Source: Bacteroidales bacterium
GTDB taxonomy: Bacteria; Bacteroidota; Bacteroidia; Bacteroidales; JAFGHD01
DNA length: 40,850 bases
Reading direction: 5' to 3'
Assembly: GCA_016939365.1 (NCBI GenBank)
Contig: JAFGHD010000039.1
Location: 1-40,850 of the forward strand
Shown here: piece after piece, positions 13,062 to 40,850 of the stretch
Layout: the number at the start of each line of letters is the position of its first letter
Numbering within the stretch: the stretch's first letter is position 1
The notes under the pieces: model-generated
Database searches by the model: none
What the model saw: the letters and a program-made list of their open reading frames with translations, nothing else
What the model was told of the DNA's origin: nothing
Program-made: the position numbers and the translations under genes

Positions 13062-13254
13062 TCCCGGAGCTGGTTGTCAGGCATGGTCATGATGTATGAA
13101 GTATGATGTATGAAGGATGATGTGATTGTATTTGATGTGTGTATGAATGTGAATGCTTATTCCTGAGAAGGGGTTCTTATTGAACTTATATTTCCTTTAC
13201 AAACTTTATCACTTTCCCCTTTTTACTCTATATGCCATTCCGGATGGATGAGGT

Positions 13255-13262
13255 TATATTTG
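13255..13262 (+). promoter_or_regulatory. Candidate -7 box for the ECF sigma operon
   Basis: TATATTTG fully matches TAnnTTTG. It lies just inside the longest possible frame (ATG at 13248) and 9 bases before the ATG at 13272, so it argues for a later start, at 13272 or at the tandem ATGs at 13290 and 13293. Confidence 0.45.
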
Positions 13263-13271
13263 CACATTGTT

Positions 13272-13838: not shown

Positions 13839-13871
13839 GGGATTTACAGGGTTGAAGTGTATTGAGTAAAG

Positions 13872-17527: not shown

Positions 17528-18354
17528 TGAGAAACCTGATCTGGATACTGGTGTTCGTGATGGCAGCCTGCGAGGAGCAGGCGGACTGGGATTTTGATGG
17601 ACAGACGCCTCTGGTGCTGGTGGTGGACGGGCTGCTGACCGATGAGGTAACGCGGCATGAGGTGCGACTCACTTTTCCCGTCAGGGCGCTGAATGAAACT
17701 CCACCGCCAGCCTCCGGGGCGGAAGTCTACATCCTCTTCGGCCTGGATGGGGATACCCTGGTGGAGGCGCTGGCCGAAGATCCGCTTTTGCCCGGGACAT
17801 ACAGAACCGGGCCGGATTACCGGGGCTATCCCGGCAGGTACTACCACCTGCTGATCCGTTACGCCGGAATGGAATTCCGGGCCGTGGACTTCATGCGGAC
17901 AGTGTGGCCGTTTGCGCCCTTCGGGTACAAACCTTCCCCCGATAACGCAGGAATGTATGAACTGGTGTTCCCCGAGAATCAGTTTGCCAATCCCGATCCG
18001 GCCATATGGTGCTTTCATCTCAATTGGTCGCATGTGCCGGGGAGTGATCCGGGACCCAACGGGACCAGGCAGGCGAAGCTGGTCTATTACACACTTCCCT
18101 CGATCGATGTGAACGGCCTGTTCCTGGAAGATTACCAGACGGTGCCTTTTCCGGCAGGCACCCGGATCGCACTGGAGAAATATGCCATATCAGAGCAGTA
18201 CGCCGAGTACCTGCGCACTGTCCTGGCAGAGACCGACTGGCGCGGCGGTGTGTTTGACATACACCCTGCCAACGCGGGCACCAACCTGAGTGCGGGCGCC
18301 ATCGGGTACTTCGCCGCCTGCACCGTGTACAGGGATACTGTGTTTGTAGAGTGA
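17527..18354 (+). CDS. DUF4249 family outer-membrane lipoprotein
   Basis: A 275-residue lipoprotein with a short signal ending FVMAAC (Cys15 lipidated). The N-terminal part has the family's LVVDGLLTDEVTRHEVRLT motif, followed by paired beta-sandwich repeats. It shares one base with the receptor stop (TGATG overlap), so the two are translationally coupled. DUF4249 proteins regularly accompany TonB receptors of this class in Bacteroidota and probably sit on the cell surface as the lid or ligand-capture partner, the role SusD has in glycan systems. The function has not been shown, and the protein is somewhat short for the family. Confidence 0.85.
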   Translation: MRNLIWILVFVMAACEEQADWDFDGQTPLVLVVDGLLTDEVTRHEVRLTFPVRALNETPPPASGAEVYILFGLDGDTLVEALAEDPLLPGTYRTGPDYRGYPGRYYHLLIRYAGMEFRAVDFMRTVWPFAPFGYKPSPDNAGMYELVFPENQFANPDPAIWCFHLNWSHVPGSDPGPNGTRQAKLVYYTLPSIDVNGLFLEDYQTVPFPAGTRIALEKYAISEQYAEYLRTVLAETDWRGGVFDIHPANAGTNLSAGAIGYFAACTVYRDTVFVE

Positions 18355-18525: not shown

Positions 18526-18750
18526 GAAGTGGTTCAATAAGAATTGCCATAGGTGCAACCTGTGGGCAGATGCGGAATAAAGCGCCGGAACCACGAAGTG
18601 GTTCAATATGAATAGCCACAGGTGAAACCTGCGGGCAGATGCGGAATAAAGAGCCGGAACCATGAAGTGGTTCAATAAGAATAGCCATGGGTGAAACCTG
18701 CGGGCAGGTATGCAATATAACGCCCCGGAACCCCGGAGGGGTTCAACGAA
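18526..18750 (+). repeat. Tandem 69-bp hairpin repeat array, three units plus a partial
   Basis: Units begin GAAGTGGTTCAAT at 18526, 18595 and 18664 (exact 69-base spacing). A fourth, divergent and partial one begins near 18736. Each boundary forms a hairpin with 7-base arms and a three-base loop: GAACCAC-GAA-GTGGTTC at 18588-18604, then GAACCAT-GAA-GTGGTTC, then GAACCCC-GGA-GGGGTTC at 18728-18744. Inside each unit a second hairpin is formed around AGGTGAAACCT or AGGTGCAACCT. No spacer diversity is present, so this is not a CRISPR array. No protein frame is conserved. Confidence 0.85.
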
Positions 18751-24097: not shown

Positions 24098-24318
24098 TAT
24101 ACAGGTGCTTGATCAGGAAACCGCTCCAAATCGCACAAGATCCTGCTGTCAACGCCTATCGGGAAACCGGTTTCAAGGTTACCGGGGAGAGGGACTGTTT
24201 CAGCCCGGAAAAGATTCCAGATGATCTGCTCCTGATACATCCTCAGTTTATTATGGTCTTTTCGTAAACAATTGAGGATGCTTCTTGTTGCTTTGTTGAC
24301 GTGTAAAGTTTGTTTTGC

Positions 24319-25194
24319 ATGAAAATGAGGTCTTCCAGGTTGTTTGTTCTTGTATCTGCCACACTCGGGCTGGCCTTCATTTCCTGCCGGCATGAGCCGG
24401 AGGAGCTGATTGTCGGTCAGCCGGTTCCGGCGGTATGCGACAGCTCCCGTGTGACTTATCCGGTTACGGTATTTCCCATACTCCAGGAGCGTTGCATCTC
24501 CTGCCACAGCGGGACGGCTCCCTCGGGAGGACTTGATTTCAGCGATTACAACAATGTCGCTATGGTTGCGGATAACGGCAGCCTGATGGGATCCATACGC
24601 CATGATGAGGGATTCAGCCCGATGCCTCAGGGAGGAGCAAAGCTGACCGATTGCGAGATCGCCCTGATCGCCAAATGGGTCAACGATACGACCTTTGAAC
24701 CGGGTGGCGGTGGTTTGCCTTGCAACCCGGATACTGTATACTTTCAGAACACCGTCTTGCCTTTGTTACAATCGAGCTGCGGGGTGACCGGATGCCACGA
24801 CCCGGCAACGGCTTCGGATGGAGTGATCCTGACGAGTTACCTGTATGTCATTCAGACTGCGGGGATAGATCCTTTCCAGCCGGAGGAGAGCGAGATTTGG
24901 GAGGTGATCACGGAAGATGATCCGGACAAGAGGATGCCTCCTCCTCCGGGACCTTCCCTCACCGACGATCAGAAAAATATTATTTACGATTGGATCGCCC
25001 AGGGAGCGCTGAACAACTATTGCGACCAGGAGCCCTGCGATTCGCTGAATGTGTCGTTCTCACAAACCGTTTGGCCGGTCATACAGAATAAATGCCTGGG
25101 TTGTCACAGTAGTGGAAGTCCGTCAGGGAATGTCGGCCTGACCGGTCACACTGAAGTGGCCTCTGCCGGCGCCATCCCTCACGGGCTTTTATGA
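24319..25194 (+). pseudogene. Multi-unit c-type cytochrome-like lipoprotein, 3' end lost
   Basis: A 291-residue lipoprotein (LGLAFISC, Cys23) built of three similar units of about 85-100 residues. Each starts V-x-F/Y-x-x-T-V-x-P-(I/L)-(L/I)-Q and carries a heme-type motif: CISCH, CGVTGCH and CLGCH. The first unit is complete, with its GSxRHDEGFSPMPQGGAKLTDCEIALIAKWV tail supplying the distal methionine, and so is the second (RMPPPPGPSLTDDQKNIIYDWI). The third unit stops 20-25 residues after its heme motif, where the frame runs into sequence belonging to a DUF5777 gene and ends at a TGA. It probably acts in extracytoplasmic electron transfer. Relatives in Bacteroidota are followed by a YceI-like and a DUF5777 gene. 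The ATG at 24319 is chosen over the upstream TTG. Confidence 0.8.
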
Positions 25195-25870
25195 GCTGTT
25201 CGGCCTCGATCAGGCCACCATCCGACTTGGCCTGGAGTATGGGGTGACCGACCGGTTGAGTATCGGTGCGGGAAGAAGCTCCTTTCAGAAGACCTATGAC
25301 GGCTTCGTGAAGTACAGGATACTCCGGCAGAGCTCGGGTGCACGAACCATGCCCGTTACCCTTGCCGCCTTTGCCTCCGCCTCGCTGAATTCCATGAAGT
25401 GGACCGATCAGGGCATTGACGACCGGAAGAACTATTTCAGTTCCCGTTTGAGCTATACCTGGATGCTGCTGGTCGCCCGCAAGTTCAGCAGCCGATTTTC
25501 CCTGCAACTTACGCCCGCTCTGGTGCACCGGAATCTGGTGCCCACAGCTGAAGACCGGAACGATCTATTTACCGTCGGCGCCGGCGGACGGTTCAAGATC
25601 ACCAGCCGGATGTCGGTGAATGCCGAATACTTCTATATCCCTGACGGCCAGATCGTCTCATCCGAATATGACGCTCCCTTCTCCTTGGGCTTCGACATCG
25701 AGACCGGCGGTCATGTCTTTCAGCTTCATTTCTCCAATGCCGGTGCTTTCTTTGATCCCGGCTACCTTACCGGAACCCGGGGACAATGGACCAACGGGGA
25801 TATTTATTTCGGATTCAATATCTCGCGGGTTTTTACCCTGAAGAAGCCAGAGGCTTTCAGGGAACAATGA
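25184..25870 (+). pseudogene. DUF5777 beta-barrel protein, 5' end lost
   Basis: Reading from GFYELFGLDQATIRLGLEYG at 25184 gives the body of a DUF5777-type outer-membrane barrel. It continues with VTDRLSIGAGRSSFQKTYDGFVKYRILRQ and regular amphipathic strands, and ends in FGFNISRVFTLKKPEAF. Family members normally begin about 60-80 residues earlier with a signal peptide and a ...HRFGxLNxG segment; these are absent. The frame is open upstream but reads the cytochrome gene in another phase. The only internal start is a GTG at 25244, which would not give export. This is therefore the 3' remnant of a gene whose 5' half is missing. Confidence 0.75.
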
Positions 25871-26352: not shown

Positions 26353-29300
26353 ATGAAAACGATTACTTTTCTTGTAGCTTTAGCAGTATTCATCTCACTC
26401 AATTTATCCGGGCAGGAAAGTATTTATCCTGTTCCATCATGGGATGGATCGAAGAACATTGACCTCTGCAGTGGTGGATCGTTCACCGTTAGCATTGACA
26501 ACTCAACCAGTGGTCACAACTACAATCTGACGCAAGCCGATACCAAGGCACTTTTGCAAACCATCATTGGGACAGGGGGAACCATAACCTTTAATCCGGT
26601 AGCCCCTGCATCCGGTGTCACTTCCTTTTCAGTGTTTGATGCAACGGACTTTTCGCCCTTCATCAATTTCACGGCAACAGTGGTTGCCGATCCTGTGGCT
26701 CCTGTACTTGACATGAATCCTTCATCGCCTGTATGTGAGGGTACCTCAGTATCCGCCACTCTGAACACAGGAGGAAGCGGTGGGGTTTCCTGCTCTGACC
26801 GCTATGAATACAGCACGGATGGAGGTAACACCTGGGCCGATTATAACCTGGGCACCAGTATTGCAACCACGGGATTGACATCTGTCAAGGTCATGGCCAT
26901 CCGCGACCAGGGTGCAGGTGTTGACCGAGGTTGTTACGCTGAGAATGAATATACATGGGTAGTGAATCCGTTGCCTGTTCCGGGGCTTTCAGGAAATACC
27001 AATCCTTGCTTTGGAGATACAGAAACGTATACTACCGAAGCGGGTATGACTGGTTATACCTGGGTGGTGACCAACGGTACCACGGCGGGATCCTCAACGA
27101 ATACCATCAATGTTATCTGGGATCAAGCTACCGGTGCAGGGAGCGTCAGTATCACTTATACCGACGGTAACGGCTGCACATCTGTTTCCCCGACACTCCT
27201 TCCGGTCACCATCACCGCCCCGCCTGTGGTTTCTTCGGTGAGCCTCCAGTATGCTCTAAGCCTGGCTGGTCCATGGACCGCCGTAAGCGGTGATCTTACA
27301 GGAGGATATTCAATGTGCATCCATCCCGACTGGGATTTCTTCTATCTGGATGTGGATCAATTGGTATCCACACCCGATATTACTGCTGAATATCTGAATC
27401 CTTTCTATGTGAACCAGACCAGCCTTCCCACGGGATGGACTGCCTACTGGACGGCAAAGGGCGTCGTCAGCGGTGCTCCGGGCTGGCAGGGAGTGATGTA
27501 CGAGATCACGATAGGGAATCAACCTATTTTCTATGTTTATAAGACATCCGGAGGGGATTACCAACTCATTGACGGACTGATGTATCAGATCGGACAGGGA
27601 TTGAGTCCCTTAAGGATCTCTGGCGATTATCCAGACGGAAATTATACTTATGATGGATCATTGCGCAGCGGGGTGGGATGCGATGCCCCTCTGAGTGTCG
27701 GTATGGCTTTCCAGAGCGGTGTGCTGAATGTTACTCAAAGTCTGGTATATTGTACCATTCAGGATGCCATTGACGGTGCTGCGCCGGGCGATCTGATCAA
27801 ACTGGGCGCCGACTTCACCGAAGGTAAGGTGACGGTTGGTAAGAGCATCACCCTGGATGGCGGCGGATTCACACTGACCTCGACATCGACCGATTATGGA
27901 ATCGCCGTTACCAGCCCCGGTGTCACGATCCAGGACATCACCGTGACCGGAGCGGGTACCTTTGGCATTCATCAGGACATCAGCTGTGGCAACCTGGCGA
28001 TTACGGATGCCACTGTGGACAACTGCGGAGGCACTGGCTTTGCCATGAACTGCTCCGACGGGATCGTCCTGACCAATATCACTTCCACGAACAACGGCGG
28101 CAACGGGCTGTCGATCCAGGATTGCCACAATGTGACCATCAACGGGATCACGACCAGCGGCAACACCTTCGGCACCTTTGGTGCAGGGATCGGGATCTTC
28201 TCTACAGGAACCTATTGTACAGCAGGATGCTCGAACATTGTCATCAATGAGCCGGTCAGCATTGCAGAGGTCCCGGCCATCTACCAGGAAGCCCCGGCGG
28301 GAGCCATCACGGGACTGGTGCTGCCGTCCGCCTATACCCATTATGTCGGATTGCTGGCACCCTATAACACCAGATACTACTTCACCAGCCTGGTGGACGC
28401 TCTGGCAGCTGCCGAATTACTTCTCTCCACAGCTCCGGTAATGCAGCTTCTTACCTATGTGAAGGAGGTCGGCGGAATGAACCTGTATGTCAGGAGTTGC
28501 ACACCGCCAACGGTCAATATGTCCATACAGGCAGCCGTCGACGCTTCCGATCCGGGAGACGTAACCCATGTCTATGCCGGTATTTATGTGGAGCAGCTGG
28601 TCATTCAAAAGGAGGGGCTTTCCATCACCGGTGCGGGTGCAGCCAGCACCTTTGTGCAGTCCCCGGCCACCCTTACCTGGTCGTTCATGACCGGCACCAA
28701 CTACAATTACCCTGTGATCGGCGTGGACGGTGTGAGTACATTCACCTTGTCAGAACTGACGGTTGACGGAGCCGGACAGGGCAACAGCAATTTCAGGTTC
28801 ACCGGTATCGGACTCTGGAATTCCGGTGCCACGATTACCAATGTTGATGTCACCGGAGTCAGGGAGACTCCTCTGGACGGGAGCCAGCATGGTATCGGCG
28901 TTTATTCCTATAATAACGGAACGGGCAGTCCATACCTGATCACCATCAACGGGATGAATGTGGATGATTTTCAGAAGAATGCCTTTGCACTCCTAGGGAA
29001 TGACCTGACAGTGGATATGGACAACGTCACCATCACGGGATCGGGGCCGCTGGGTTCGGGGCTTCCCGCCCAGAATGGCATCCAGATCGGTTATGGTGCA
29101 GGCGGAACCGTTGACAATTGCGTGATCACCGATATCGATTACACCGGAGGAACATATGCTGCTTCGGGATATATCCTGACGACGGCCGGCAGCGTTGCGG
29201 CAAACAATGTGGATATCAGCAACTGCCAGACCAGTGTGTACATCATCGATTCCGACGGCTCCTTCAACGGAAGTGATATCACTAATCCCACGGGTGACGG

Positions 29301-32300
29301 AGTTTATATCTACTCTACAGGATCGAAGTCCGGAGGCAAGATTCTTAAGGACCTCCCGATGGCCTCGGTGATCGAGGAAAACTTTGCAGGGGGAAATCCG
29401 GAATCTACCAACGTTACCTTTTCACTGGATGGCTGTGTGATCACCGGTACCGGTGCGGCATCCTCCATGGGGGTTGTACCGTTTGGCTATGATGCCATCA
29501 CGGCCCAGATAGATGACTGTGAGATCACGAACTGGGAATATGGCGTAGTGGCTCTGGATTACAGCGGTGCGGTAATCAACAGCACTACCTATCACTGTGA
29601 TCTTTCAAACAATATCCTTGGATTTTACAGTAACACGATAAATATCCAGGATGCGGAGGAGAACTGGTGGGGTTCGGACACCGGACCGTACAACAATCCA
29701 TACAATACCTGCGGACTGGGGAGCGAGGCATACGGAACCGTTGATTTCATCCCCTGGTGTGTGGATGCAGTCTGCAGCGGAACGACCACCGGGCTTGCAC
29801 TGGTTGTTCATAATGTCACCAAGGATACCTACTACTGCAAGATTCAGGATGCCATTGATGATGCGAATGACGGAGATGTTATCACAGCTCTGGCAGGCAC
29901 ATATAATGAATCGTTGCTGATCAACAAGGGGCTGACCCTCACCGGGGCCGGAGCACTGACCACAGCCATCACGGGAGGCGTGGTATTTGGTGACGGCACC
30001 TTTACAGGGGTGACCATTGACGGATTCACCATCACGGGTGACTCGCCGGCAGGAAGCAATGATGCCGTTTTCGACATGATCGTGGGTGGCGTAGTAACCA
30101 ATATCACCATCCAAAACTGTGTCCTGGACGGCGAAGGCACCAACAGGGAGTGCTTCTATGGAAGGACCGGCAGGGTTGCCGGAACATGGACCTGGCACAA
30201 CAACACCATCAGGGATTTCAGGGAGTGGTATGTCATCGACAATACCGGAAGCACTAACTATCCTGTCGTTCCTCTGACCTCCGTTGTATTTACAGATAAC
30301 ATTGTCACGGGTCTGGGCGGGACGATCGTCTTCCGCGGCAAGCTGGATGAGCCGATGACCCATGCGGTAATCAGCGGCAATACCATGACCGGCTGGGTGG
30401 ACAACTCATCAGGAGGAGGATGGATCTGGGCCGGTATCGAGATCAACAATGTGACTGATCTGGATGTGTTCAACAATACGATCACGGGAGTCCCGATGCA
30501 GGGCGACGAAGGCCAGGCGTTCCAGGCCTGGAGCGTGACGGCATGGGATGTGGATATCCATAACAATGTATTTGACAACAATTACCAGGGTATTTATATT
30601 CCCACCTATGTAGGCACGGATGTGAACATGGCATGTTATGTTCCCACGGGTGCTATATACAGCAACTCCATCAGCGGCAACACCGACTTTAATCTGGAGT
30701 TGAGCGATTCACCCCCGGGTTCCGGGATCAGCAGCGGCATCGGCGGACCGCTTGATGCCACCTGTAACTGGTGGGGATCGGCGGATCCATTCGTGATCGC
30801 CGGCGGCATCTGGGGAGATGTTCAGTTCATGCCTTTCTGGACCTCCAACATAGGCCCGTGTAATGGAAACGGCCCGGTGGTCAACATGACGCAGAACAAA
30901 CATTATCTGCAGATCCAACCTGCCATCAATGAAGCCAATGCGGGCGATGAGATCCATGTTGCAGCAGGGACCTACGTCGAAAACCTGCTGGTCTCCAAAG
31001 CCATCACCTTAATAGGGGCGGGAAGGGATGTGACCTTTGTGGATGCAGCTTCGGCTAATTATACCCTTGATATCGACGGTAATGTCGCTGGAATGACAGG
31101 CACTGTCACCATTCAGGGGTTTTCTTTCAGAGATCCGTCGCGGATTCACTGGATGATCGTCAAGTCCGATCATATCCCCAACACTGCTCAGCTGATTTTC
31201 CAGAATAACAGGATTGGAGATGGGGATGGTTACGGATGGTGGGATTACCATTCCCATGGTGCACTGACATGTACCAATAATATTTTTTCAGACGTTTCCT
31301 ATGCATTTCAGCTGGAAGGATGGGACGATCAGCCCGTGACCATTCAGGGCAATGAATTTACCAACCTGCATGTCTGGCTTGAAAACGGCGTCCCGTTGCC
31401 GGATTATCCTCCTGTTGCCTTAAATCCTTTCACATATAACGGGCTGGATTGTAACAATGCCTATCTGATTGACGGTAATACCTTTCATAATTACACCGAG
31501 AGCGGATATGGTATTGTGATCAATGGAGGATATCCCAACCAGACCCCTGCAAAATATACCAATGTCACCATTTCAGGTAATGTATTCGATAATGTGGGTC
31601 TGGTTGCTCTGAGATTGACGAACCGTACGCCATCAGGTGAAGATCCGCTGGGTGGAGTGCATAACGCCAGTGTCACAGGCAATACTTTCAATGGTTGCAC
31701 CAAAGGATTATTTGTATCCGGGTTGAATCCCGGAACGGAAGCACATACCAATCAGTTCCTGACATGGACAGATTATGCATTGGAAAACACCGGATCCGCC
31801 ATGGTGAATGCAACCTGTAACTGGTGGAACACTGCGGATCCATATGGTGTAGCCAATTCAATATCAGGGCTTGTACAGTTTCTTCCGTACCTGACCAGTC
31901 CAACAGGCACATGCAACGGTCTGGGCCCGGTTGTCAATGTGACCCAGAACAAGAGCTACATGGAGATCCAGCCTGCGATCAACGAGGCGAATCCTATGGA
32001 CCGGATTGACGTGGCCGCAGGGGTATTCCACGAGCGGCTGACCGTAAGCAAATCACTCGACCTGCGCGGCGCCCAGTATGGCGTGGATCCCACCCTCCCG
32101 GGTTCCCGTATCAATCCGGCCAATGAAACCGTCATCGACCTGGTGGGACTTCCCGTCACCAATCCCAACGTGATGATCGAGATCCCGGCGGGTGTGACGG
32201 ATGTCTCCTTCGACGGGTTCACACTCAACGGCAGCCAGACCACGCACTATGCCGACGAGGCGGTGGTCAGGTCCTGGGATGATGACATCACCATCAACAA

Positions 32301-35300
32301 CAATATCATCGACGGGTATTACAACCTTCTGTACAAGGGAGGTTCCGGCCTGATTGCCAACTACAACCGGATGGTCACCAACAAGGTGGGTATCACCATA
32401 CAGCCCTATCCTGCTGCCAGTGTTACCCTCTCAGGAAATACAATTGTTCCGGGTCTGGCCCTTGCATCAGATCCATATGGGATATACCTGACCGGAGGCA
32501 ATAATGTGGTGATTTCAGGTAACAGCATTTCGGGATTCGCCGGAGGATGCAGTATTGGAGGTAGCAATAACAACAATATCGACATCCTCGGCAATACCTT
32601 GTCCGGTAATAAAAAGGGTGTCAACATCTGGGGCAATAGCACCTTCATTGAGATATCCGGTAACGAGATCTACAACTCCATCGAGCGGGGTATCGACATC
32701 AAGGGAGCCGACCTGACGATTACCGGCAACAACATCTACAGCAACGGTACCGAGGGTGTCCGGATCGCCTATCATGTCATACCTACAGTCAATGTGGCGG
32801 TAAATGAGAACATCCTCACGGGTAACGGCACATACGGACTGCTGGTGGATCCGGCGGTGACACAGACGGTGAATGCCACCTGTAACTGGTGGGGTTCGGC
32901 CGATCCGGCGGTAGTGGCTGCATCATTTTCAGGGAATGCCAATGTGGTACCCTTCTGGGTCGGAACTTCAGGTCCTTGCACCGGAAGCGGCCTGGTTGCC
33001 AACCTGACCCAGGGCACCAGCTACATGACCATTGCAGAGGCGATCAATGCCGCTATTCCGAATGATGTCCTTCAGTTGTCCGAACACATCTTCAACGAAC
33101 GGGTGGTGATCGACAAACCACTCACCCTGCAGGGTGTATCGGAAGCCAACTGTATCATCGACGGATCATCGTTCGGAACGGACGGACGCGGTATTTACAT
33201 CGATTATAATGTCGAAAATGTGACGATCAAATACCTGACCGTCCGTAATTTCCAAGGTTCAAATGGTAATCTGCATGGAGGCATTTATGCCATCGGCGGT
33301 AACAACAACCTGACGGTGGAGCATGTCACCATCCATGACAATGTGGGTGGAAGCGGCTTCTATGCCAACGGGCCGATTGACAATGTACTGCTGGATTATG
33401 TAACATCATTCGGACACACGGTCGGGGCACGCGGCATTGTGATCTGGAACGGCTACAAGAGCCACATCACGATCACCAACTGCCATGTTTACGGCAACAA
33501 CTGCTGCGGCATCGAGCTGCAGGACGGTACAGCCTCAGGCGTGACGATGAACAACAACAACGTTCATGACAACGGCGACAGCGGTATGAGCGCTGTAGGC
33601 CTTACCGCGGGCGCTGGACCGAACACCATCAGCAACAACATCCTGGCCGACAACGGCCGGTACGGCATCGAGGTCAAGTGTCCGGACGGCACAGGTCTGG
33701 CCACCGGCGACGGCAGCATCGTGCTGGACAACAATGTGGTGACCTTTACCGCTTCTACCTTGATGAACAACCGCGACCATGCCGGTATTGCGGTGTTCAG
33801 ACGGGGCTATCTGACCGGATCGGGTTACAACGACATACCGACCGGGGTGATAGTGACCAACAATACAGTAAGCGGCTACACGCAGATGAATCCCACGGCG
33901 ACCACCAGCGAAGGTTTCGGCATTGTGGTGGAAGGGGTGGATCATACGGTGACAGGTAACATCCTCGACGGCAACGACGTAGGTTTGCAGCTTCAGGGCG
34001 GAGGGCACCCGGTCCCGAATTACAATTTCGAGGCTGCAGGCGACGGCGAGCAGGCCGACGGGGCTTCACCGTTTTATTTCGGACGCGGCAATGCGCCCTA
34101 CATGTGTAACATTACGGCAGGTGGCAACAGCTTCGGAACCACAACACCCAACGGAACCGACACCCGTGTGGTTGTTGAACCTCTGACACCGCTGGTGGAT
34201 CCTCTGGCGATAGCCAATCAGGTGGAAAAGAAGGTTCAGAACACCGATACCCAGATCACCTACTGTTCATTCCAGGGAGCCATCAATGCAGTGTATACCG
34301 ATAACGGAGATGTGATTGTGGCAAGTCCGGCTACCTATTACGAATCAAATATTCTGGTCAACAAGCAACTTACGATCCAGGGAACCAGCAGACCGGATGT
34401 GATCCTTGGTCCGGCCGCAGTGGACGATCACAACAACAGCGGTGGTTTTTCCGGAGTTTACCAGCACGGGTTCATTGTTGAGAGCGATTATGTGACCATT
34501 ATGAACCTGACCATTGACGGAGAGGCCAACACGACCCTGGTGCCCAACGACCACAACTTCCGCATGGGGATCACCACCCAGGATGGAATGGGATTCGATA
34601 ATCTGCACATCGACAACGTCTCCATCGACAACATATACCGCCGTGGCGTATACATCGGCGGAAGTACAACCAGCGGACATTTGGTGGAGAATTGCTCGGT
34701 GACGGATGTCGTTCGCCATGACGGGATCATTTCAATTGGTTCTGCTGAATTCCTGAACAATACTGTTTCTGATGTCAACGGAGATGGGGCTACCGCAAGT
34801 GCTGCGGCAATAAGGGGCTATTCTGCCGCTCTTTTCGTGGGAAACAATATCAGCAATTGCCTCTGGGGCATTGTAGCGGACACTGATGCCGAGATTCTCG
34901 ACAATGTGATCGACGACATCTCCGTCGGTATCGTGATGAACAACCTGTTCTATGGCGTCCATGCCTCGGATGCGGTCATTCAGGGGAACACGATCACCAA
35001 TGTCCGTGAGACCGGCTATGTGATGTACGGAGTGGGCATGAGCCTGGTCAACCTGGCTTCCGGGAGCACCATCGGAGGTTCCGATCCTACCGAGAGGAAT
35101 GTCATCGATATCACATCCGGCACCGATGTGCTTGGCATGAATGTCTGGTGGAACCCGGGTCCGATCGTCATCCAGAACAACGAGATCAGGATTGCAGGTG
35201 ATAATTATGGCATATACCTGCAGTACACGGTAGATGAAACCACCTCTGTACTGTTGCAGGATAACGAGATATACAGCACCGTCGCCGGACAGGGGACAGG

Positions 35301-38300
35301 TGTTCTGATGAACGAAGGTGTGGATAACGGCGATGTGTTTGCATCCTTCACAGGGAATGAGTTCACAGGTCTTGAGGCCGGACTGTACATGGCGCTCAGC
35401 GGTGGAAACAAGCGCATTGAAGCTACCATTGGCGGTTCCGCGGGCGATGAGAATACCTTCACCGGGAACACCACGGCCATCAGGGTAGAGGAATATGATG
35501 GAGCTACCAACGGCATCACCACCAAGGCGGAGGTCCTGGGGAATGTGTTCAGCGGTAACACCGGTACGGCTATCGAGATCGCCGGGGGTATGGTCATCCA
35601 GGTATACAGGAACCAGATGTCCAACAACGGTTATGGCTTGAAGGTACAGGGCACGGGTGAGATGACCTCCTGCACGGAGAATTTCATCGACTTCAGCACC
35701 TCTGACGGTGTGATGATCGCTGCCGATGCCGGCGTCGTCGGCCCCATCAACGACAACCATTTCGAAGGGAATCTGGGTTATGGGATCAACAACCTGCTGG
35801 CCAGCCCCACCCTGGATGCCACATGTAACTACTATGATCCTTCGGGCAATGCCGTGGCCGGCAATACAACCTATCTGCCCTACCTGATCACGGGTGTGGA
35901 CAACGATCCACTGACCCCTGGCTTCCAGCCTGTACCCGGTTCCTGTACCTCGCCCGGGGAGTTCTTCGTGAACGATGACTCGTTGCTGGGCGATGTGTAT
36001 ACGACGGCAGTGGGCAACAATGCCAACCTGGGCACCTCCGATGCCCCGTTCAGGGATATCCAGTATGCCATAGGTATTGCTCCGGCAGGAAGCACGATCA
36101 AGGCAGACGTGGGCGCATATGTCGAGGATATCGTTGTGGACAAGGAGCTGACCCTGCTCGGCCCCAATGCCGGTATCTGCGGCAATGGTGCACGTGTTGG
36201 TGAAGCGATTGTATATCCGGCCACTGCAGATATTGAGTATGGCATCATCATGGAAGTGACAGCCAGCAACGTGACCATTGACGGGTTCCTGCTCGACGGG
36301 GACAATCCGGCCCTCGTTTCGGGATTTGTCTGCACCAATGGCGCCGACCAGGATGCCAGCGACGGTATCGCGGTCTATTCCGATAATGTCAGCAACCTGA
36401 CTGCACAGAACAACATCATCAGGAACCTGTCATTTGCCGGCGTGTCTCTCTACGGCGCCTCCTTCAGCGCTCCGGCCACATCGGGACACCTGGTATCCTG
36501 CAACCTGATAGAACACCTCGGTACATACGACCCGGCATCGAATGTGGATTACTGGGGCATCGGCGTGCTGATCTACAATGACCAGTATGCCCGGATCGTA
36601 AACAATGAGATGGTGAACGTCCGGGGGGGTGTCCAGACCGGCAACTTCAGCGATCCCAACCCGGGTGACCCGTTGTACCAGGTGATCGACAACAATACGA
36701 TCCAGACACGCCGCAGGGGTATCTTCCACAACCTGCATTATGGCGGCGCTTCTGCCCTGACATTGTCGAACAATACGATCACAGCCATTCCCGAACCGAA
36801 TGAAACGGTCTGGGACGGCATTTTCCTCGGTTCATTATCGAATGCGGTCAGCCCATGTGTGGACAATCACATTGACGGCAGCGCGGTATCAGTCCCGTCG
36901 GAAGGATATGAAGTTTGGAATGTCAAGAATACTGCACCTGTTGGTATTTCAGGAGGTTCCGTTGCGGGTGTGACCACAGGTCTGTTCATGAACAACTATG
37001 AGGGTAATAACAGCAATGCCGGGGACGGTGCCCACGCCACCCTGAGCGGTCTGGCCATCACTCCTGCTGCCGGCGGTACCGGTATCCGTATCCTGGACAG
37101 CCCGAGCAGCACCCATGCCAATGTGCAGCTGACCCTTGGAGCAGGTGTCACGGTGACCGGAGGTGCGGAAGGTGTGACGGTGGAGGGCCAGAATGCAACG
37201 CTTCTCGGCACAGGTGATCTGGCACTGAACGGCCAGACTTCCAACTACTTCAGACTCTTCGATAACGCTGTGGATATTGATGCCACCGGCGTAGTGTTTG
37301 ACGGTTCATTGGGATCCGCCATGACGCTGCCGGAGCTGTTCACCACCGAGGACATGATCGTCCATGCCATCGATGATGCCGGCTTAGGCTTCATCCTGGT
37401 GAATGACCTGAACACCTACGTCACCCTGAACAGCTTTGTTCCCCCGGCCACCACCGAACCTTCCATCCAGCGCGCCATTGATGAGGCTTCTGCCGGATGG
37501 ACGGTGAACGTCAATGATGGCACCTACAACGGAAACCTAAATTTAGGTAAGGAACTGGGCCTTGTATCAGCCAACGGTTACACGGCGACTACCATTGCCG
37601 GAGCCGGTGGCGCTGCCGTCACAGTAGCTTCCGACGGTGTTGAGCTGAACGGTTTCACCGTTACCAATCCGGATGGATCGAATGCAGTTTACTCCTCGGG
37701 ATTCGGCAACCTCGAAATCAGGAACAACAACTTCGAATCTATCGGCAACAATCTGACCAGCGGCAACACCCATGCCGTGGCGGTTTCTTCGAACAGTAAC
37801 GCTGTTGACAATGTGCTCATTGAGGACAATATCTTCACGGATATCCACGGTGGCGAGAGCGATCCGCCCATATCCAACGGAAGTGCGGCTGCCATCGGTA
37901 TCGGCTGGTCAGATGCGAATTATGACATCACCAACCTGGTGATCCAGAGGAATGTGATCAGCAACGTGAATGCCTGCATCCTGCCCTGGGCTTCGCAGAA
38001 CAAGGGCGGAAAGGGAGCCTATGGCATTATCGTGAACACCGGCGGAAAAGCCACTGCCACCGGTCAGGCTGTGCATCCATTGATCGTCAATAATGAGATT
38101 TCTGATCTGGAGGGCCTCTGGGCGCACGGTATCGGACTGGAGGGTGATATCCCGGCTGCCCAGGTCGAGAACACCCTGATCACCGACCTGACCGACCACA
38201 AGGTGGAGAACGATGCCTCTGCCATCATGATCGAGGACAATGAATCGGCATCCTCGTCCATCATCAACAACAACAGTTTCACATTGGTAGAATCGGCCAT

Positions 38301-40850
38301 CCGCAATGTGACGGTCAATCAGGTGGATGTGACCTGTAACTGGTTCGGAACCACAGACCCGGCAGCCATTGCACTTCTGCTGGAAGGACCGGTCAATGTA
38401 CTTTCGTTCCTTGACAACGGCACGGACAATGAACCGGGTACAGTCGGATTCCAGCCTGTTCCGGGAAGTTGCGGAGGCCTGTTACCGGTGCATAATGTGA
38501 CCCAGAACCTGTTTTACGGTACTATCAAGTCTGCCGTACTGGATGCCAACAGCGGTGATGTGATCGATGTGGCAGCCGGCACAATCGTGGAGAACGGTCA
38601 GATCGTCATCGACAAGAACCTGACCATCGGCGGAGCCGGAATGGGCGCGACGATCGTCAGGACCGACCAGAACACCGGCAGCGGCGGTGACGCCCGCGGC
38701 TGGTGGCTGGTAAATACCGGTATTACTTTCCATTTGAGCGACATGACCCTCGACGGTACCGGTTACCTGGTATACCAGGGGATCAGGCACATGGGAACAG
38801 GAACCATTGATCAGGTGGAATTCACCCATATCAAGTACAATGAAAGCGGGCCGACTTATGGAGGTGTAGCCGTGGCAGCCTTCGGTTCGGGAATTGCCGA
38901 TGTGGACATCACCAACTGCGACTTCTCAGAAATAGGCAGGGTAGGCGTACTGTACTTCGGTACTGGGATCACCGGCTCTGACTTTATCGGTAACACTTAC
39001 GCGGGCAAGGGCCCCGGCAACTGGCTGGACTATGCACTGGATATCAGCGCCGGTGCGGTGGTCAACGTGCAGAACAACATCATCAGCGGCAACCGGGGTG
39101 TGGCGGCTTCCGACGGAAGCACATCGGGGGCAGTAATGGTGACCACCCTTTATGGTGCAGGCACCACCTCCACGATCCTGAACAATGAGATCACGGACAA
39201 CAGCACGGCCATTCTTGTCGGATACGACGGCACCGATGTGAGCACGGTCACAGCCCATATGAACAGAATCTTCGGCAATGACTGGGGTGTTTATTCCACA
39301 ACCCAGACAGTGGATGCCACCGACAACTGGTGGGGTGATCCCACAGGGCCGTACAATGATCCGCACAATACCTGCGGGCTGGGAGACACCATCTCAGGTA
39401 ATGTCACCTTCTTTGAATGGTGGGCGGATGCAGCGATGACGACGCGGTATGCTTATCCCGCGCCTGTCATCACCTCATGCCCGGCGGATGTGACCCTGGC
39501 GCAGTATGAAGACAGGGATCCCTATGCCACCGGCTGGGCCCTGGCTGATCCGCTGTCGAACTGTTACAATCCGGTGGTGGTTACCTACGATGACGACCGC
39601 AGCGGGCTGACGGGATGCAATGTCACCGGAACCATCCTGCGTACCTTCACCGCCACCGACTACCTCGGGCAGGTTACGACATGTACACAGACCATAACCA
39701 TTACAGATGTCTCCGATCCGGTGGTCGTCTGTCCGGCTGATATCACTCAGGATAATGATCCCGGAGTGTGCGGCGCCGTGGTCACCTTCGAACCGACAGC
39801 ATCAGATTTTGGTTTCTTCCAGGGATTTGAGCATGCCGACTGGGTACCCGGCCATTACTACAGTGTTGCATTGGGCTTCGGCCCCTCCACCGACTGGAAC
39901 GAATACAACAGCCCGATGAATCGGGTACCTTCCGGAACGGGAGGAATCGTTTCGAAGACCGGCAGTGCACATGCGGTGTTCTACTCTGCAGGCATCCCGC
40001 CCGCACCGGATGATTATACCGGTATCTTCAGCAGGCTGGGTGGTTACGGCAATGTATTCGGCGACGGATTTGTCGTGACACAGGATGTCTACTTCGACCT
40101 GTCCGACCCATGGGTGGCGACGAGCACATACGGCTGGGATGCTTCCTGTGCTGCAAACACCCAGACGGGTGGTCACCTCCGGGACTTCATCTTCCATACG
40201 GCGGGCGAGCCCGGCAAGATACTGGTGGCTGCCTCGAACAACACCAACTTCACACGGCGGAATGACCTGGCTACCCTGAATCATTTCGAAGTGGTAACCA
40301 CCGGCTGGTACACGTTGCAGTGGGTCTTCAGGGATGCCGGTGACGGCACATTGGCAGTCGACTGCAACCTGCTCGATGCGTTGGGTAACCTGCTGTGGAC
40401 CGAAACCAGGAACAACACCGGCGATGTGATCGCTACGGTGGTGGGTGGCAACCGCTACCTGTGGTTCACCTTCCTCGAAGCCGACCAGCTGGCCATTGAC
40501 GACACCCGTCTGATGCGGAATCTGGTGGTCACCTCGACACCGCCCAGCGGATCATACTTCATCGTCGGCACCACTCCCGTTAGCGCGGAAGCCACGGATG
40601 CCTGCGGCAACGGCCCGGCATCCTGTACATTCAATGTGACGGTCGAAGACAATGAACCGCCGGTGGCTGTATGCCAGAACATCACCGTGTATCTCAACAG
40701 CATCGGAGAAGTGGACATTGTGGCCACCGATGTGGATGGCGGCAGTACCGATAATTGCGGCATCGCCTCCTATGATGTTGACAAGGATCATTTCACATGT
40801 GCTGACCTGGGTGCAAATACGGTAATACTGACCGTAACCGATGTTCATTC
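26353..40850 (+). CDS. Giant modular right-handed beta-helix surface protein, cut by the window end
   Basis: The frame is open from the ATG at 26353 to the last base, at least 4832 codons. It begins with a signal peptide (MKTITFLVALAVFISLNLSG-QE). Residues about 20-455 are Ig/PKD-like (PVCEGTSVSATL, NPCFGDTETYTTEAGMTGYTW) plus a region of unknown type. Residues about 457-4370 hold ten beta-helix modules starting near 457, 718, 1150, 1507, 1857, 2212, 2631, 3203, 3684 and 4044. Each opens with an IQxAI...GDxIxVxxGTY cap and is full of short N-N-x-I/V-T/S-G-N turns. Many end with CNWWG. HYR domains follow from about 4371. It is probably exported and held at the cell surface, where such helices act as adhesins or polysaccharide binders/lyases. 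No catalytic residues can be assigned. A type IX sorting tail would be expected beyond the window. Reverse-strand frames here are shadows. Confidence 0.92.
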   Translation, partial: MKTITFLVALAVFISLNLSGQESIYPVPSWDGSKNIDLCSGGSFTVSIDNSTSGHNYNLTQADTKALLQTIIGTGGTITFNPVAPASGVTSFSVFDATDFSPFINFTATVVADPVAPVLDMNPSSPVCEGTSVSATLNTGGSGGVSCSDRYEYSTDGGNTWADYNLGTSIATTGLTSVKVMAIRDQGAGVDRGCYAENEYTWVVNPLPVPGLSGNTNPCFGDTETYTTEAGMTGYTWVVTNGTTAGSSTNTINVIWDQATGAGSVSITYTDGNGCTSVSPTLLPVTITAPPVVSSVSLQYALSLAGPWTAVSGDLTGGYSMCIHPDWDFFYLDVDQLVSTPDITAEYLNPFYVNQTSLPTGWTAYWTAKGVVSGAPGWQGVMYEITIGNQPIFYVYKTSGGDYQLIDGLMYQIGQGLSPLRISGDYPDGNYTYDGSLRSGVGCDAPLSVGMAFQSGVLNVTQSLVYCTIQDAIDGAAPGDLIKLGADFTEGKVTVGKSITLDGGGFTLTSTSTDYGIAVTSPGVTIQDITVTGAGTFGIHQDISCGNLAITDATVDNCGGTGFAMNCSDGIVLTNITSTNNGGNGLSIQDCHNVTINGITTSGNTFGTFGAGIGIFSTGTYCTAGCSNIVINEPVSIAEVPAIYQEAPAGAITGLVLPSAYTHYVGLLAPYNTRYYFTSLVDALAAAELLLSTAPVMQLLTYVKEVGGMNLYVRSCTPPTVNMSIQAAVDASDPGDVTHVYAGIYVEQLVIQKEGLSITGAGAASTFVQSPATLTWSFMTGTNYNYPVIGVDGVSTFTLSELTVDGAGQGNSNFRFTGIGLWNSGATITNVDVTGVRETPLDGSQHGIGVYSYNNGTGSPYLITINGMNVDDFQKNAFALLGNDLTVDMDNVTITGSGPLGSGLPAQNGIQIGYGAGGTVDNCVITDIDYTGGTYAASGYILTTAGSVAANNVDISNCQTSVYIIDSDGSFNGSDITNPTGDGVYIYSTGSKSGGKILKDLPMASVIEENFAGGNPESTNVTFSLDGCVITGTGAASSMGVVPFGYDAITAQIDDCEITNWEYGVVALDYSGAVINSTTYHCDLSNNILGFYSNTINIQDAEENWWGSDTGPYNNPYNTCGLGSEAYGTVDFIPWCVDAVCSGTTTGLALVVHNVTKDTYYCKIQDAIDDANDGDVITALAGTYNESLLINKGLTLTGAGALTTAITGGVVFGDGTFTGVTIDGFTITGDSPAGSNDAVFDMIVGGVVTNITIQNCVLDGEGTNRECFYGRTGRVAGTWTWHNNTIRDFREWYVIDNTGSTNYPVVPLTSVVFTDNIVTGLGGTIVFRGKLDEPMTHAVISGNTMTGWVDNSSGGGWIWAGIEINNVTDLDVFNNTITGVPMQGDEGQAFQAWSVTAWDVDIHNNVFDNNYQGIYIPTYVGTDVNMACYVPTGAIYSNSISGNTDFNLELSDSPPGSGISSGIGGPLDATCNWWGSADPFVIAGGIWGDVQFMPFWTSNIGPCNGNGPVVNMTQNKHYLQIQPAINEANAGDEIHVAAGTYVENLLVSKAITLIGAGRDVTFVDAASANYTLDIDGNVAGMTGTVTIQGFSFRDPSRIHWMIVKSDHIPNTAQLIFQNNRIGDGDGYGWWDYHSHGALTCTNNIFSDVSYAFQLEGWDDQPVTIQGNEFTNLHVWLENGVPLPDYPPVALNPFTYNGLDCNNAYLIDGNTFHNYTESGYGIVINGGYPNQTPAKYTNVTISGNVFDNVGLVALRLTNRTPSGEDPLGGVHNASVTGNTFNGCTKGLFVSGLNPGTEAHTNQFLTWTDYALENTGSAMVNATCNWWNTADPYGVANSISGLVQFLPYLTSPTGTCNGLGPVVNVTQNKSYMEIQPAINEANPMDRIDVAAGVFHERLTVSKSLDLRGAQYGVDPTLPGSRINPANETVIDLVGLPVTNPNVMIEIPAGVTDVSFDGFTLNGSQTTHYADEAVVRSWDDDITINNNIIDGYYNLLYKGGSGLIANYNRMVTNKVGITIQPYPAASVTLSGNTIVPGLALASDPYGIYLTGGNNVVISGNSISGFAGGCSIGGSNNNNIDILGNTLSGNKKGVNIWGNSTFIEISGNEIYNSIERGIDIKGADLTITGNNIYSNGTEGVRIAYHVIPTVNVAVNENILTGNGTYGLLVDPAVTQTVNATCNWWGSADPAVVAASFSGNANVVPFWVGTSGPCTGSGLVANLTQGTSYMTIAEAINAAIPNDVLQLSEHIFNERVVIDKPLTLQGVSEANCIIDGSSFGTDGRGIYIDYNVENVTIKYLTVRNFQGSNGNLHGGIYAIGGNNNLTVEHVTIHDNVGGSGFYANGPIDNVLLDYVTSFGHTVGARGIVIWNGYKSHITITNCHVYGNNCCGIELQDGTASGVTMNNNNVHDNGDSGMSAVGLTAGAGPNTISNNILADNGRYGIEVKCPDGTGLATGDGSIVLDNNVVTFTASTLMNNRDHAGIAVFRRGYLTGSGYNDIPTGVIVTNNTVSGYTQMNPTATTSEGFGIVVEGVDHTVTGNILDGNDVGLQLQGGGHPVPNYNFEAAGDGEQADGASPFYFGRGNAPYMCNITAGGNSFGTTTPNGTDTRVVVEPLTPLVDPLAIANQVEKKVQNTDTQITYCSFQGAINAVYTDNGDVIVASPATYYESNILVNKQLTIQGTSRPDVILGPAAVDDHNNSGGFSGVYQHGFIVESDYVTIMNLTIDGEANTTLVPNDHNFRMGITTQDGMGFDNLHIDNVSIDNIYRRGVYIGGSTTSGHLVENCSVTDVVRHDGIISIGSAEFLNNTVSDVNGDGATASAAAIRGYSAALFVGNNISNCLWGIVADTDAEILDNVIDDISVGIVMNNLFYGVHASDAVIQGNTITNVRETGYVMYGVGMSLVNLASGSTIGGSDPTERNVIDITSGTDVLGMNVWWNPGPIVIQNNEIRIAGDNYGIYLQYTVDETTSVLLQDNEIYSTVAGQGTGVLMNEGVDNGDVFASFTGNEFTGLEAGLYMALSGGNKRIEATIGGSAGDENTFTGNTTAIRVEEYDGATNGITTKAEVLGNVFSGNTGTAIEIAGGMVIQVYRNQMSNNGYGLKVQGTGEMTSCTENFIDFSTSDGVMIAADAGVVGPINDNHFEGNLGYGINNLLASPTLDATCNYYDPSGNAVAGNTTYLPYLITGVDNDPLTPGFQPVPGSCTSPGEFFVNDDSLLGDVYTTAVGNNANLGTSDAPFRDIQYAIGIAPAGSTIKADVGAYVEDIVVDKELTLLGPNAGICGNGARVGEAIVYPATADIEYGIIMEVTASNVTIDGFLLDGDNPALVSGFVCTNGADQDASDGIAVYSDNVSNLTAQNNIIRNLSFAGVSLYGASFSAPATSGHLVSCNLIEHLGTYDPASNVDYWGIGVLIYNDQYARIVNNEMVNVRGGVQTGNFSDPNPGDPLYQVIDNNTIQTRRRGIFHNLHYGGASALTLSNNTITAIPEPNETVWDGIFLGSLSNAVSPCVDNHIDGSAVSVPSEGYEVWNVKNTAPVGISGGSVAGVTTGLFMNNYEGNNSNAGDGAHATLSGLAITPAAGGTGIRILDSPSSTHANVQLTLGAGVTVTGGAEGVTVEGQNATLLGTGDLALNGQTSNYFRLFDNAVDIDATGVVFDGSLGSAMTLPELFTTEDMIVHAIDDAGLGFILVNDLNTYVTLNSFVPPATTEPSIQRAIDEASAGWTVNVNDGTYNGNLNLGKELGLVSANGYTATTIAGAGGAAVTVASDGVELNGFTVTNPDGSNAVYSSGFGNLEIRNNNFESIGNNLTSGNTHAVAVSSNSNAVDNVLIEDNIFTDIHGGESDPPISNGSAAAIGIGWSDANYDITNLVIQRNVISNVNACILPWASQNKGGKGAYGIIVNTGGKATATGQAVHPLIVNNEISDLEGLWAHGIGLEGDIPAAQVENTLITDLTDHKVENDASAIMIEDNESASSSIINNNSFTLVESAIRNVTVNQVDVTCNWFGTTDPAAIALLLEGPVNVLSFLDNGTDNEPGTVGFQPVPGSCGGLLPVHNVTQNLFYGTIKSAVLDANSGDVIDVAAGTIVENGQIVIDKNLTIGGAGMGATIVRTDQNTGSGGDARGWWLVNTGITFHLSDMTLDGTGYLVYQGIRHMGTGTIDQVEFTHIKYNESGPTYGGVAVAAFGSGIADVDITNCDFSEIGRVGVLYFGTGITGSDFIGNTYAGKGPGNWLDYALDISAGAVVNVQNNIISGNRGVAASDGSTSGAVMVTTLYGAGTTSTILNNEITDNSTAILVGYDGTDVSTVTAHMNRIFGNDWGVYSTTQTVDATDNWWGDPTGPYNDPHNTCGLGDTISGNVTFFEWWADAAMTTRYAYPAPVITSCPADVTLAQYEDRDPYATGWALADPLSNCYNPVVVTYDDDRSGLTGCNVTGTILRTFTATDYLGQVTTCTQTITITDVSDPVVVCPADITQDNDPGVCGAVVTFEPTASDFGFFQGFEHADWVPGHYYSVALGFGPSTDWNEYNSPMNRVPSGTGGIVSKTGSAHAVFYSAGIPPAPDDYTGIFSRLGGYGNVFGDGFVVTQDVYFDLSDPWVATSTYGWDASCAANTQTGGHLRDFIFHTAGEPGKILVAASNNTNFTRRNDLATLNHFEVVTTGWYTLQWVFRDAGDGTLAVDCNLLDALGNLLWTETRNNTGDVIATVVGGNRYLWFTFLEADQLAIDDTRLMRNLVVTSTPPSGSYFIVGTTPVSAEATDACGNGPASCTFNVTVEDNEPPVAVCQNITVYLNSIGEVDIVATDVDGGSTDNCGIASYDVDKDHFTCADLGANTVILTVTDVH
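27721..39400 (+). repeat. Ten tandem beta-helix modules within the giant protein
   Basis: Module starts are near 27721, 28504, 29800, 30871, 31921, 32986, 34243, 35959, 37402 and 38482, giving lengths of roughly 260-570 residues. The entry motif is NxTQxxxYxxIQxAIxxAxxGD followed by GTYxExLxVxKxxTLxGAG. The exit motif is CNWWG or a variant: NWWG at 29662, 30766, 32884 and 39325, NWWN at 31819, NYYD at 35827, NWFG at 38338. Modules starting at 27721, 32986 and 35959 lack the exit motif. Modules 4 and 5 are most alike at their entry. The divergence shows old duplication, not a recent tandem expansion. Confidence 0.8.
39463..40850 (+). other. HYR domain region, second HYR interrupted by an inserted domain
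   Basis: A first HYR domain (about 39463-39711) reads VITSCPADVTLAQ ... RTFTATDYLGQVTTCTQTITITD. A second starts VVVCPADITQDNDPGVCGAVVTFEPTASD and is broken at about 39808. Its second half, TPPSGSYFIVGTTPVSAEATDACGNGPASCTFNVTVED, returns at about 40525. The roughly 239-residue insert is rich in aromatic residues and strands (FEHADW, GGYGNVFGDGFVVTQDVYFDLSD, WYTLQWVFRDAGDGTLAVDCNLLDA) and looks like a jelly-roll lectin or laminin-G-type fold. A further HYR-associated segment (AVCQNITVYLN ... DVDGGSTDNCG) runs to the window end. Confidence 0.7.

What the first reader, a model, noticed from the sequence alone, without database searches (positions are those of the whole stretch)
26353..40850. Open frame of at least 4832 codons encoding an exported multi-helix giant protein
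One uninterrupted frame fills the last 14.5 kb. It combines a signal peptide, Ig/PKD-like domains, about ten separately capped beta-helix modules and HYR domains. Giant adhesins exist in Bacteroidota, but ten complete capped helices in one chain, each restarting with its own N-cap, is an uncommon architecture. It implies a fibre of linked solenoids rather than one long solenoid.
Basis: partly seen in the sequence, partly recalled or inferred. Interest (0 to 1): 0.7.

Follow-up and report, generated by a model that had tools for sequence, protein, structure and literature searches.

The report
Giant surface protein of ten beta-helices
A Bacteroidota-type bacterium encodes an exported protein of more than 4,800 amino acids built from ten separate, individually capped beta-helix domains of mixed ancestry, an extreme member of a rare but recurring class of surface fibres that probably bind glycans.

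Summary
One frame runs from 26353 to the contig end without a stop; coding statistics favour it throughout and no 24-mer is repeated inside it. It holds a signal peptide, Ig/PKD domains, ten beta-helix N-caps, seven NWWG-type C-caps and HYR domains. Two AlphaFold models show the helix restarting at N-caps, with M5, M8 and M9 each matching complete single-domain beta-helix proteins: linked solenoids, not one solenoid.

The window is a whole contig, so the C-terminus is missing. The best candidate is the start of contig C99: the only other HYR in the genome, then PKD-like, dockerin-like and cohesin-like domains, a T9SS type A sorting tail, and next a multi-cohesin gene. The join is inferred; a complete 3,909-aa relative with nine N-caps ends in the same block and is also followed by a cohesin gene.

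Ten is the most seen in 198 order and 395 phylum genomes, but 5 to 9 recur in unrelated families. M2, M6, M9 and M10 have 39-55% identical full-length relatives in other families' giants, closer than any module within this protein: whole modules seem to be exchanged. Most likely a T9SS-exported glycan-binding surface fibre; new variant of a known kind.

The parts
26353..26415 (+). signal peptide, aa 1-21 (cleavage before Gln assumed)
   Evidence: by inspection of the translation
26416..26982 (+). two Ig-like domains, aa 22-210 (Ig_7/CHU_C-associated-like; CHB_HEX_C-like)
   Evidence: weak sub-cut-off Pfam matches; aa 1-227 is 39% identical to the N-terminus of another giant, L073
26986..27189 (+). 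PKD-like domain, aa 212-279
   Evidence: PF19408 E 5e-5, just under cut-off
27205..27732 (+). domain without Pfam match, aa 285-460
   Evidence: 36% identical (aa 261-455) to a domain in the protein encoded next to the nine-cap relative (L069); no meaningful Pfam match
27694..28461 (+). beta-helix module M1 (aa 448-703, N-cap 468, short, no C-cap seen)
28462..29778 (+). beta-helix module M2 (aa 704-1142, N-cap 724, C-cap 1104); closest relatives L076 module 3 (39%) and L085 module 5 (36%)
29779..30849 (+). beta-helix module M3 (aa 1143-1499, N-cap 1163, C-cap 1472)
   Evidence: full-length similarity to M4 and M5
30850..31902 (+). beta-helix module M4 (aa 1500-1850, N-cap 1520, C-cap 1823)
   Evidence: AlphaFold model
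31903..32967 (+). beta-helix module M5 (aa 1851-2205, N-cap 1871, C-cap 2178)
   Evidence: alone matches single-domain beta-helix enzymes, Z 23-27
32968..34206 (+). beta-helix module M6 (aa 2206-2618, N-cap 2226); 51% identical over full length to L084 module 7
34207..35994 (+). beta-helix module M7 (aa 2619-3214, N-cap 2639, C-cap 3159)
35995..37401 (+). beta-helix module M8 (aa 3215-3683, N-cap 3235, DUF1565 match)
   Evidence: model matches AlgE6 A-module, Z 34.1
37402..38460 (+). beta-helix module M9 (aa 3684-4036, N-cap 3704, C-cap 3996); 43% identical to L084 module 5
38461..39462 (+). beta-helix module M10 (aa 4037-4370, N-cap 4057, C-cap 4325); 47-55% identical to L084 modules 4 and 6
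39463..39732 (+). HYR-like domain, aa 4371-4460
   Evidence: by inspection; no separate Pfam match
39733..39846 (+). first half of a split HYR domain, aa 4461-4498
   Evidence: by inspection; Pfam HYR covers only profile positions 40-81 of this domain
39847..40488 (+). about 215-residue domain inserted in the HYR domain, aa 4499-4712; candidate ligand-binding head
   Evidence: no Pfam or significant PDB match; 52% identical to a stand-alone lipoprotein domain in one of 395 phylum genomes
40489..40650 (+). second half of the split HYR domain, aa 4713-4766
   Evidence: PF02494 E 2e-7
40657..40848 (+). last HYR-like domain, cut by the contig end, aa 4769-4832
   Evidence: sequence; contig ends at 40850

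Best explanation
A giant cell-surface fibre exported by the type IX secretion system. A Sec signal peptide takes the chain to the periplasm; the T9SS (SprA pore) recognises a type A C-terminal domain, here inferred to lie on contig C99, moves the chain through the outer membrane, and the chain is anchored at the surface. Outside, ten right-handed beta-helices, each with its own N-cap and most with a C-cap, fold as separate rods joined by linkers. The rods are of different sub-families, so the chain offers several different long polysaccharide-binding faces; a domain budding from a split HYR near the C-terminal side is a further candidate ligand-binding head. The dockerin-like and cohesin-like modules before the tail, with the cohesin-repeat protein encoded next door, suggest that the fibre is tethered to a partner protein. 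Shown: frame, caps, module folds predicted for M4-M5 and M8-M9, T9SS in the genome, conservation of end block and neighbour. Inferred: C38-C99 join, anchoring, glycan binding, docking.
For: Frame integrity; caps; models and folds; SprA 2599 bits; type A tails genome-wide. C99 begins in an open frame with HYR, the only other HYR in the genome, and ends with TIGR04183 above cut-off and PF18962 above cut-off. A complete nine-N-cap relative (L069, 3909 aa) has a signal peptide and ends with the same block (C99 aa 185-603 vs 3479-3908, E 2e-28). Cohesin-like domain: hhalign 98% to cohesin repeats, PDB cohesin 2xdh E 8e-8. A cohesin gene directly follows 13 of 19 genes with this block. Whole-module relatives in other giants. 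Most top structural matches are polysaccharide-active or polysaccharide-binding beta-helices, or adhesins such as PfbA.
Against: The contig ends inside the gene, so the sorting tail is not in the window and the C38-C99 join is circumstantial. A shared beta-helix fold does not show glycan binding. One of the complete relatives with seven N-caps (L084) shows no T9SS tail at its end. The Dockerin_1 match on C99 is below cut-off. Three modules show no C-cap motif. The second model has a pTM of only 0.49.
Confidence: 0.62

Rival explanations
1. A multi-enzyme strand: several of the ten helices are catalytic (lyases, epimerases or glycosidases), and the protein degrades a complex polysaccharide at the cell surface, like a cellulosome made in one chain.
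For: Best structural matches are alginate epimerases/lyases, polygalacturonases, rhamnogalacturonan lyase and inulin lyases; glycoside hydrolase genes GH3 and alpha-L-fucosidase lie upstream and a GH38 alpha-mannosidase lies on C99; sub-families such as M6 and M10 keep long conserved motifs between families.
Against: No module matches a specific enzyme family above cut-off in Pfam; the AlgE-type motif YGxDPH, recalled from memory, is absent; beta-helix folds are common in non-enzymes.
Confidence: 0.2
2. A gliding-motility adhesin of the SprB kind.
For: Giant T9SS-type surface protein with HYR/PKD domains; SprB is the major T9SS-dependent motility adhesin (PMC10202324).
Against: SprB carries a type B tail (PMC10202324); the candidate tail here is type A; no SprB repeat was reported for this protein by Pfam. 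Gliding genes were not searched for, apart from SprA.
Confidence: 0.07
3. The window's giant and the C99 frame are different genes; the real C-terminus is elsewhere or missing from the assembly.
For: No overlap or read evidence links the contigs; the end of C38 does not match the start of C99.
Against: HYR occurs at only two places in the 97% complete genome, the 3' end of C38 and the 5' start of C99, both open at the contig edge and in the right orientation; relatives carry HYR or beta-helix arrays in front of the same block in one frame.
Confidence: 0.15
4. Assembly artefact: several beta-helix genes fused by misassembly or sequencing frameshift.
For: Fragmented assembly in 197 contigs.
Against: Uniform coding signal in one frame, no repeated 24-mers, and a complete nine-cap homologue in another family.
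Confidence: 0.03

Closest known systems
Tandem beta-helix giants of related genomes (unnamed here; L069, L084, L085, L070-L072)
   Same: Signal peptide, 5-9 N-capped beta-helix modules in one chain, in two complete cases (L069, L085) a T9SS tail; module sub-families shared
   Different: Fewer modules; different order and combination; L084 lacks an evident T9SS tail
SprB and RemA, T9SS surface adhesins of Flavobacterium johnsoniae (PMC10202324)
   Same: T9SS-dependent surface adhesins; SprB is very large (own knowledge)
   Different: SprB has a type B tail; no tandem capped beta-helices known to me; RemA has a type A tail but a different architecture (own knowledge)
NosD / AlgE A-module / PL6 single-domain beta-helices
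   Same: Fold of each module; M8 matches AlgE6 A-module with Z 34.1, M5 matches alginate epimerase/lyase 8jaz with Z 26.6
   Different: Sequence identity only 10-19%; TIGR04247 NosD score 172 against a cut-off of 300; ten in one chain
RTX adhesins with split domains (e.g. AhLap, PMC12077191)
   Same: Chain of extender domains with a ligand-binding domain budding from a split Ig-like domain
   Different: Type I secretion, Ig-like extenders instead of beta-helices, no T9SS tail
Cellulosomal cohesin-dockerin systems
   Same: Dockerin-like and cohesin-like modules, adjacent multi-cohesin gene
   Different: Gram-negative T9SS context; dockerin match weak; no dockerin-bearing enzyme set shown

Membership tests
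T9SS type A cargo | Sec signal peptide | tested here: met
   aa 1-21 by inspection
T9SS type A cargo | Type A C-terminal domain (TIGR04183/PF18962) | tested here: inconclusive
   Absent from the window because the contig ends; present above cut-off on the candidate continuation C99, link not proven
T9SS type A cargo | T9SS machinery in the genome | tested here: met
   SprA 2599 bits, full length; 135 TIGR04183 matches
T9SS type A cargo | Cleavage and attachment at the surface | not testable with these tools
   needs protein work
Right-handed parallel beta-helix (pectin-lyase-like) domains | N-cap followed by rungs, per module | tested here: met
   ten N-caps; models with Z 23-34 for M5 and M8, up to 28 for M9; the other modules by sequence only (M9 and M10 have no Pfam match)
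NosD copper-maturation family | score above NCBIfam cut-off | tested here: not met
   172 bits against 300
AlgE mannuronan epimerase | A-module fold | tested here: met
   M8 to 5lw3 Z 34.1, rmsd 2.9, 335 aligned
AlgE mannuronan epimerase | catalytic motif YGxDPH (recalled from memory) | tested here: not met
   motif absent from the whole chain
SprB gliding adhesin | SprB repeats (PF13573) | tested here: not met
   not among Pfam matches up to E 0.1
SprB gliding adhesin | type B C-terminal domain | tested here: inconclusive
   candidate continuation has type A; true C-terminus not proven
Cohesin-dockerin systems | cohesin domain | tested here: met
   on C99, not in the window: hhalign 98%, cohesin 2xdh E 8e-8; the next gene matches PF00963
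Cohesin-dockerin systems | dockerin F-hand pair that binds a cohesin | tested here: inconclusive
   C99 Dockerin_1 below cut-off; binding not testable

The most novel reading that the evidence does not exclude
Bacteroidota-type bacteria build surface fibres combinatorially from complete, capped beta-helix domains that are exchanged between unrelated giants as whole units, and tether them through a dockerin-cohesin pair to a cohesin-repeat protein encoded in the next gene: a T9SS-exported, modular glycan-binding (or glycan-processing) system, of which this ten-module chain is the longest seen here.
Probability: 0.3. Interest if true: 0.75.

Novelty: new variant of a known kind. Interest (0 to 1): 0.52.

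Why it matters
Solenoid fibres are usually thought of as one long helix (filamentous haemagglutinin kind) or as one helix on a stalk. A chain of ten independently capped helices of different ancestry is a different way to build a long surface rod: modules can be swapped whole without disturbing neighbours, so binding specificities could be shuffled. The conserved pairing of a dockerin-like/cohesin-like/T9SS end block with a following cohesin-repeat gene makes a testable prediction of a two-part surface assembly outside classical cellulosomes.

Tried and rejected
Overlap of the last 251 bases with other contigs gave only the query itself and weak or chance matches. A first 28-row alignment was useless because overlapping window rows aligned to themselves. 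The inserted domain has no Pfam or significant PDB match. Domain order is not collinear with any relative examined, so the idea of a conserved orthologous giant was dropped in favour of module shuffling. A regular-expression attempt to measure the expected gap between C38 and C99 from relatives' HYR repeats gave nothing useful. Paper searches found no description of tandem capped beta-helix giants, but the library lacks most subscription journals.

Full report
CHECK OF THE OBSERVATION. The frame from 26353 to the last full codon (40848) is open for 4832 codons and starts with ATG followed by a typical signal peptide. An open run of that length has log10 P of about -62 under the observed stop-triplet rate; codon statistics trained on ten neighbouring genes favour this frame in all 23 sub-windows, and no 24-mer is repeated within the ORF. 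The window equals the whole contig C38 (40850 bases) of a 3.67-Mb, 197-contig, 97% complete assembly, so the protein continues beyond the data. The visible part is 506 kDa with pI 4.1.

ANATOMY. Signal peptide; two weak Ig-like domains; a PKD_6-like domain; a domain of about 175 residues without a Pfam match; ten beta-helix modules; HYR-like domains. The N-cap motif (consensus NVTQxxxYxxIQxAIxxAxxGDVIxVxAGTYxExLxVxKxLTLxGAG) occurs ten times. Seven C-caps of the NWWG kind follow modules M2, M3, M4, M5, M7, M9 and M10. The HYR domain at aa 4461-4766 is split by an insert of about 215 residues (by inspection; Pfam HYR covers only the second half). The insert has no Pfam match and occurs 52% identical as a stand-alone lipoprotein domain in 1 of 395 phylum genomes. 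In RTX adhesins, domains budding out of split domains are the ligand-binding heads (PMC12077191); by analogy this is a candidate head.

MODULE BREAKS. AlphaFold with a 14-row alignment of module pairs from this protein and relatives gave pLDDT 76 and pTM 0.65 for M4-M5-start of M6, with N-cap helices at model residues 22-28, 373-379 and 728-734 and C-cap helices at 331-335 and 686-690. In the structural comparison, M5 alone (model 359 to about 714) aligns with complete single-domain beta-helix proteins: alginate epimerase/lyase 8jaz Z 26.6, PfbA adhesin 4mr0 Z 26.0, NosD 7osf Z 23.7. For M8-M9, where M8 has no C-cap motif, the model is weaker (pLDDT 69, pTM 0.49) but has a low-confidence linker at 406-487 between two helices; M8 alone matches the AlgE6 A-module (Z 34.1, 335 of 381 residues) and M9 alone matches other single-domain beta-helices (5mqp Z 28.1; 1ru4 Z 27.1). 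This favours linked solenoids over one continuous solenoid. Only four of the ten modules were modelled.

THE MISSING END. HYR (PF02494) occurs at only two places in the genome: the 3' end of C38 and the first bases of contig C99, both in frames that run off the contig edge, in matching orientation. C99 then encodes a PKD-like, a carboxypeptidase-regulatory-like, a dockerin-like and a cohesin-like domain and a T9SS type A tail above cut-off, then a stop. The join is inferred, since no overlap exists. Support comes from relatives: L069 (another family of the order) is a complete 3909-aa protein with signal peptide and nine N-caps that ends with the same block (E 2e-28); L079 has HYR-type repeats followed by the same block in one frame; in the own genome, C85 has a beta-helix protein with the same block.

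THE END BLOCK AND ITS NEIGHBOUR. The cohesin-like assignment rests on profile comparison with the cohesin repeats of the next gene on C99 (98%; those repeats match PF00963) and on cohesin structures in PDB (2xdh E 8e-8). In 13 of 19 loci with the end block, the next gene on the same strand starts with cohesin repeats (L023, L025, L026, L027, L029, L031, L032, L035, L036, L037, L038, L069, L081; not seen in L028, L030, L033, L034, L080, L083). In the own genome, cohesin matches fall on only three contigs, C77, C85 and C99, each also with a dockerin match. A dockerin-cohesin tether between the giant and its neighbour is a reasonable inference, untested.

HOW UNUSUAL. Scanning with the N-cap profile, 85 of 198 order genomes (E up to 1e-3) and 142 of 395 phylum genomes (E up to 1e-6) have at least one match, mostly one or two per ORF. 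Ten per ORF is the maximum (this window). Others: nine (L069, complete), seven (L070, cut by contig end; L084, complete 3645 aa), five (L071 and L072, cut; L085, complete with T9SS tail). The profile was built from this window, match lists were truncated and many relatives are cut at contig ends, so counts for the others are lower bounds and the comparison leans in favour of this window.

MOSAIC ORIGIN. M3, M4 and M5 are most similar to each other (27-30% over full length). M2, M6, M9 and M10 have full-length relatives in giants of other families (39% L076, 51% L084, 43% L084, 47-55% L084) with bit scores several times their best match inside this protein (248 vs 64, 293 vs 45, 201 vs 42, 267 vs 64). 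The order is not collinear between giants, except that M9-M10 resembles L084 modules 5-6. The unit that moves is the whole capped module, which is independent evolutionary support for the module boundaries. Ancient duplication with differential loss is not excluded without trees.

MECHANISM. Best reading: T9SS-exported surface fibre of separate rods that bind different glycans, perhaps tethered by a dockerin-cohesin pair. The genome has SprA and many type A cargo. Published work describes type A cargo as being cleaved by PorU and attached to A-LPS (PMC10202324). Glycan binding is inferred from fold neighbours, from GH3 and fucosidase genes upstream and from GH38 on C99. Enzyme activity of some modules remains possible; no module matches a specific enzyme family above cut-off and the AlgE motif recalled from memory is absent.

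VERDICT. The architecture is rare but recurrent, so it is an extreme member and new variant of T9SS-type giant surface proteins, with two added points: apparent module exchange between giants and the conserved cohesin neighbour.

Noticed in passing
window 24310-25194 and 25244-25870: A three-haem cytochrome-type gene breaks off soon after its third CxxCH, and the adjacent DUF5777 barrel gene matches its profile only from position 55: two genes that seem truncated into each other by deletion, frameshift or assembly error.
   Followed up: partly
window 18526-18746: Tandem array of 3.2 copies of a 69-base unit, 85% matches, between the DUF4249 gene and the GH3 gene.
   Followed up: no
window 13248-18354: ECF sigma factor, FecR, TonB-dependent receptor with STN/CarbopepD domains and DUF4249: a classical sigma/anti-sigma-regulated outer-membrane uptake set.
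   Followed up: no
L023 (contig C99) 9737-12379: 880-aa protein with two Fib_succ_major stretches on the candidate C-terminal contig, near a GH38 gene and a sugar-transporter-like gene.
   Followed up: no
G053 (21 matches; L025, L035, L081-L083): One genome of the order carries 21 matches of the dockerin-like/cohesin-like/T9SS end block, apparently a large expansion of such surface proteins.
   Followed up: partly
L069 3-3980 (- strand): The gene after the nine-cap giant starts with a cohesin domain and itself ends with the same dockerin-like/cohesin-like block, so such proteins could chain.
   Followed up: no
L084 656-11590 (- strand): Complete 3645-aa protein with seven N-caps but no evident T9SS tail at its end.
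   Followed up: no
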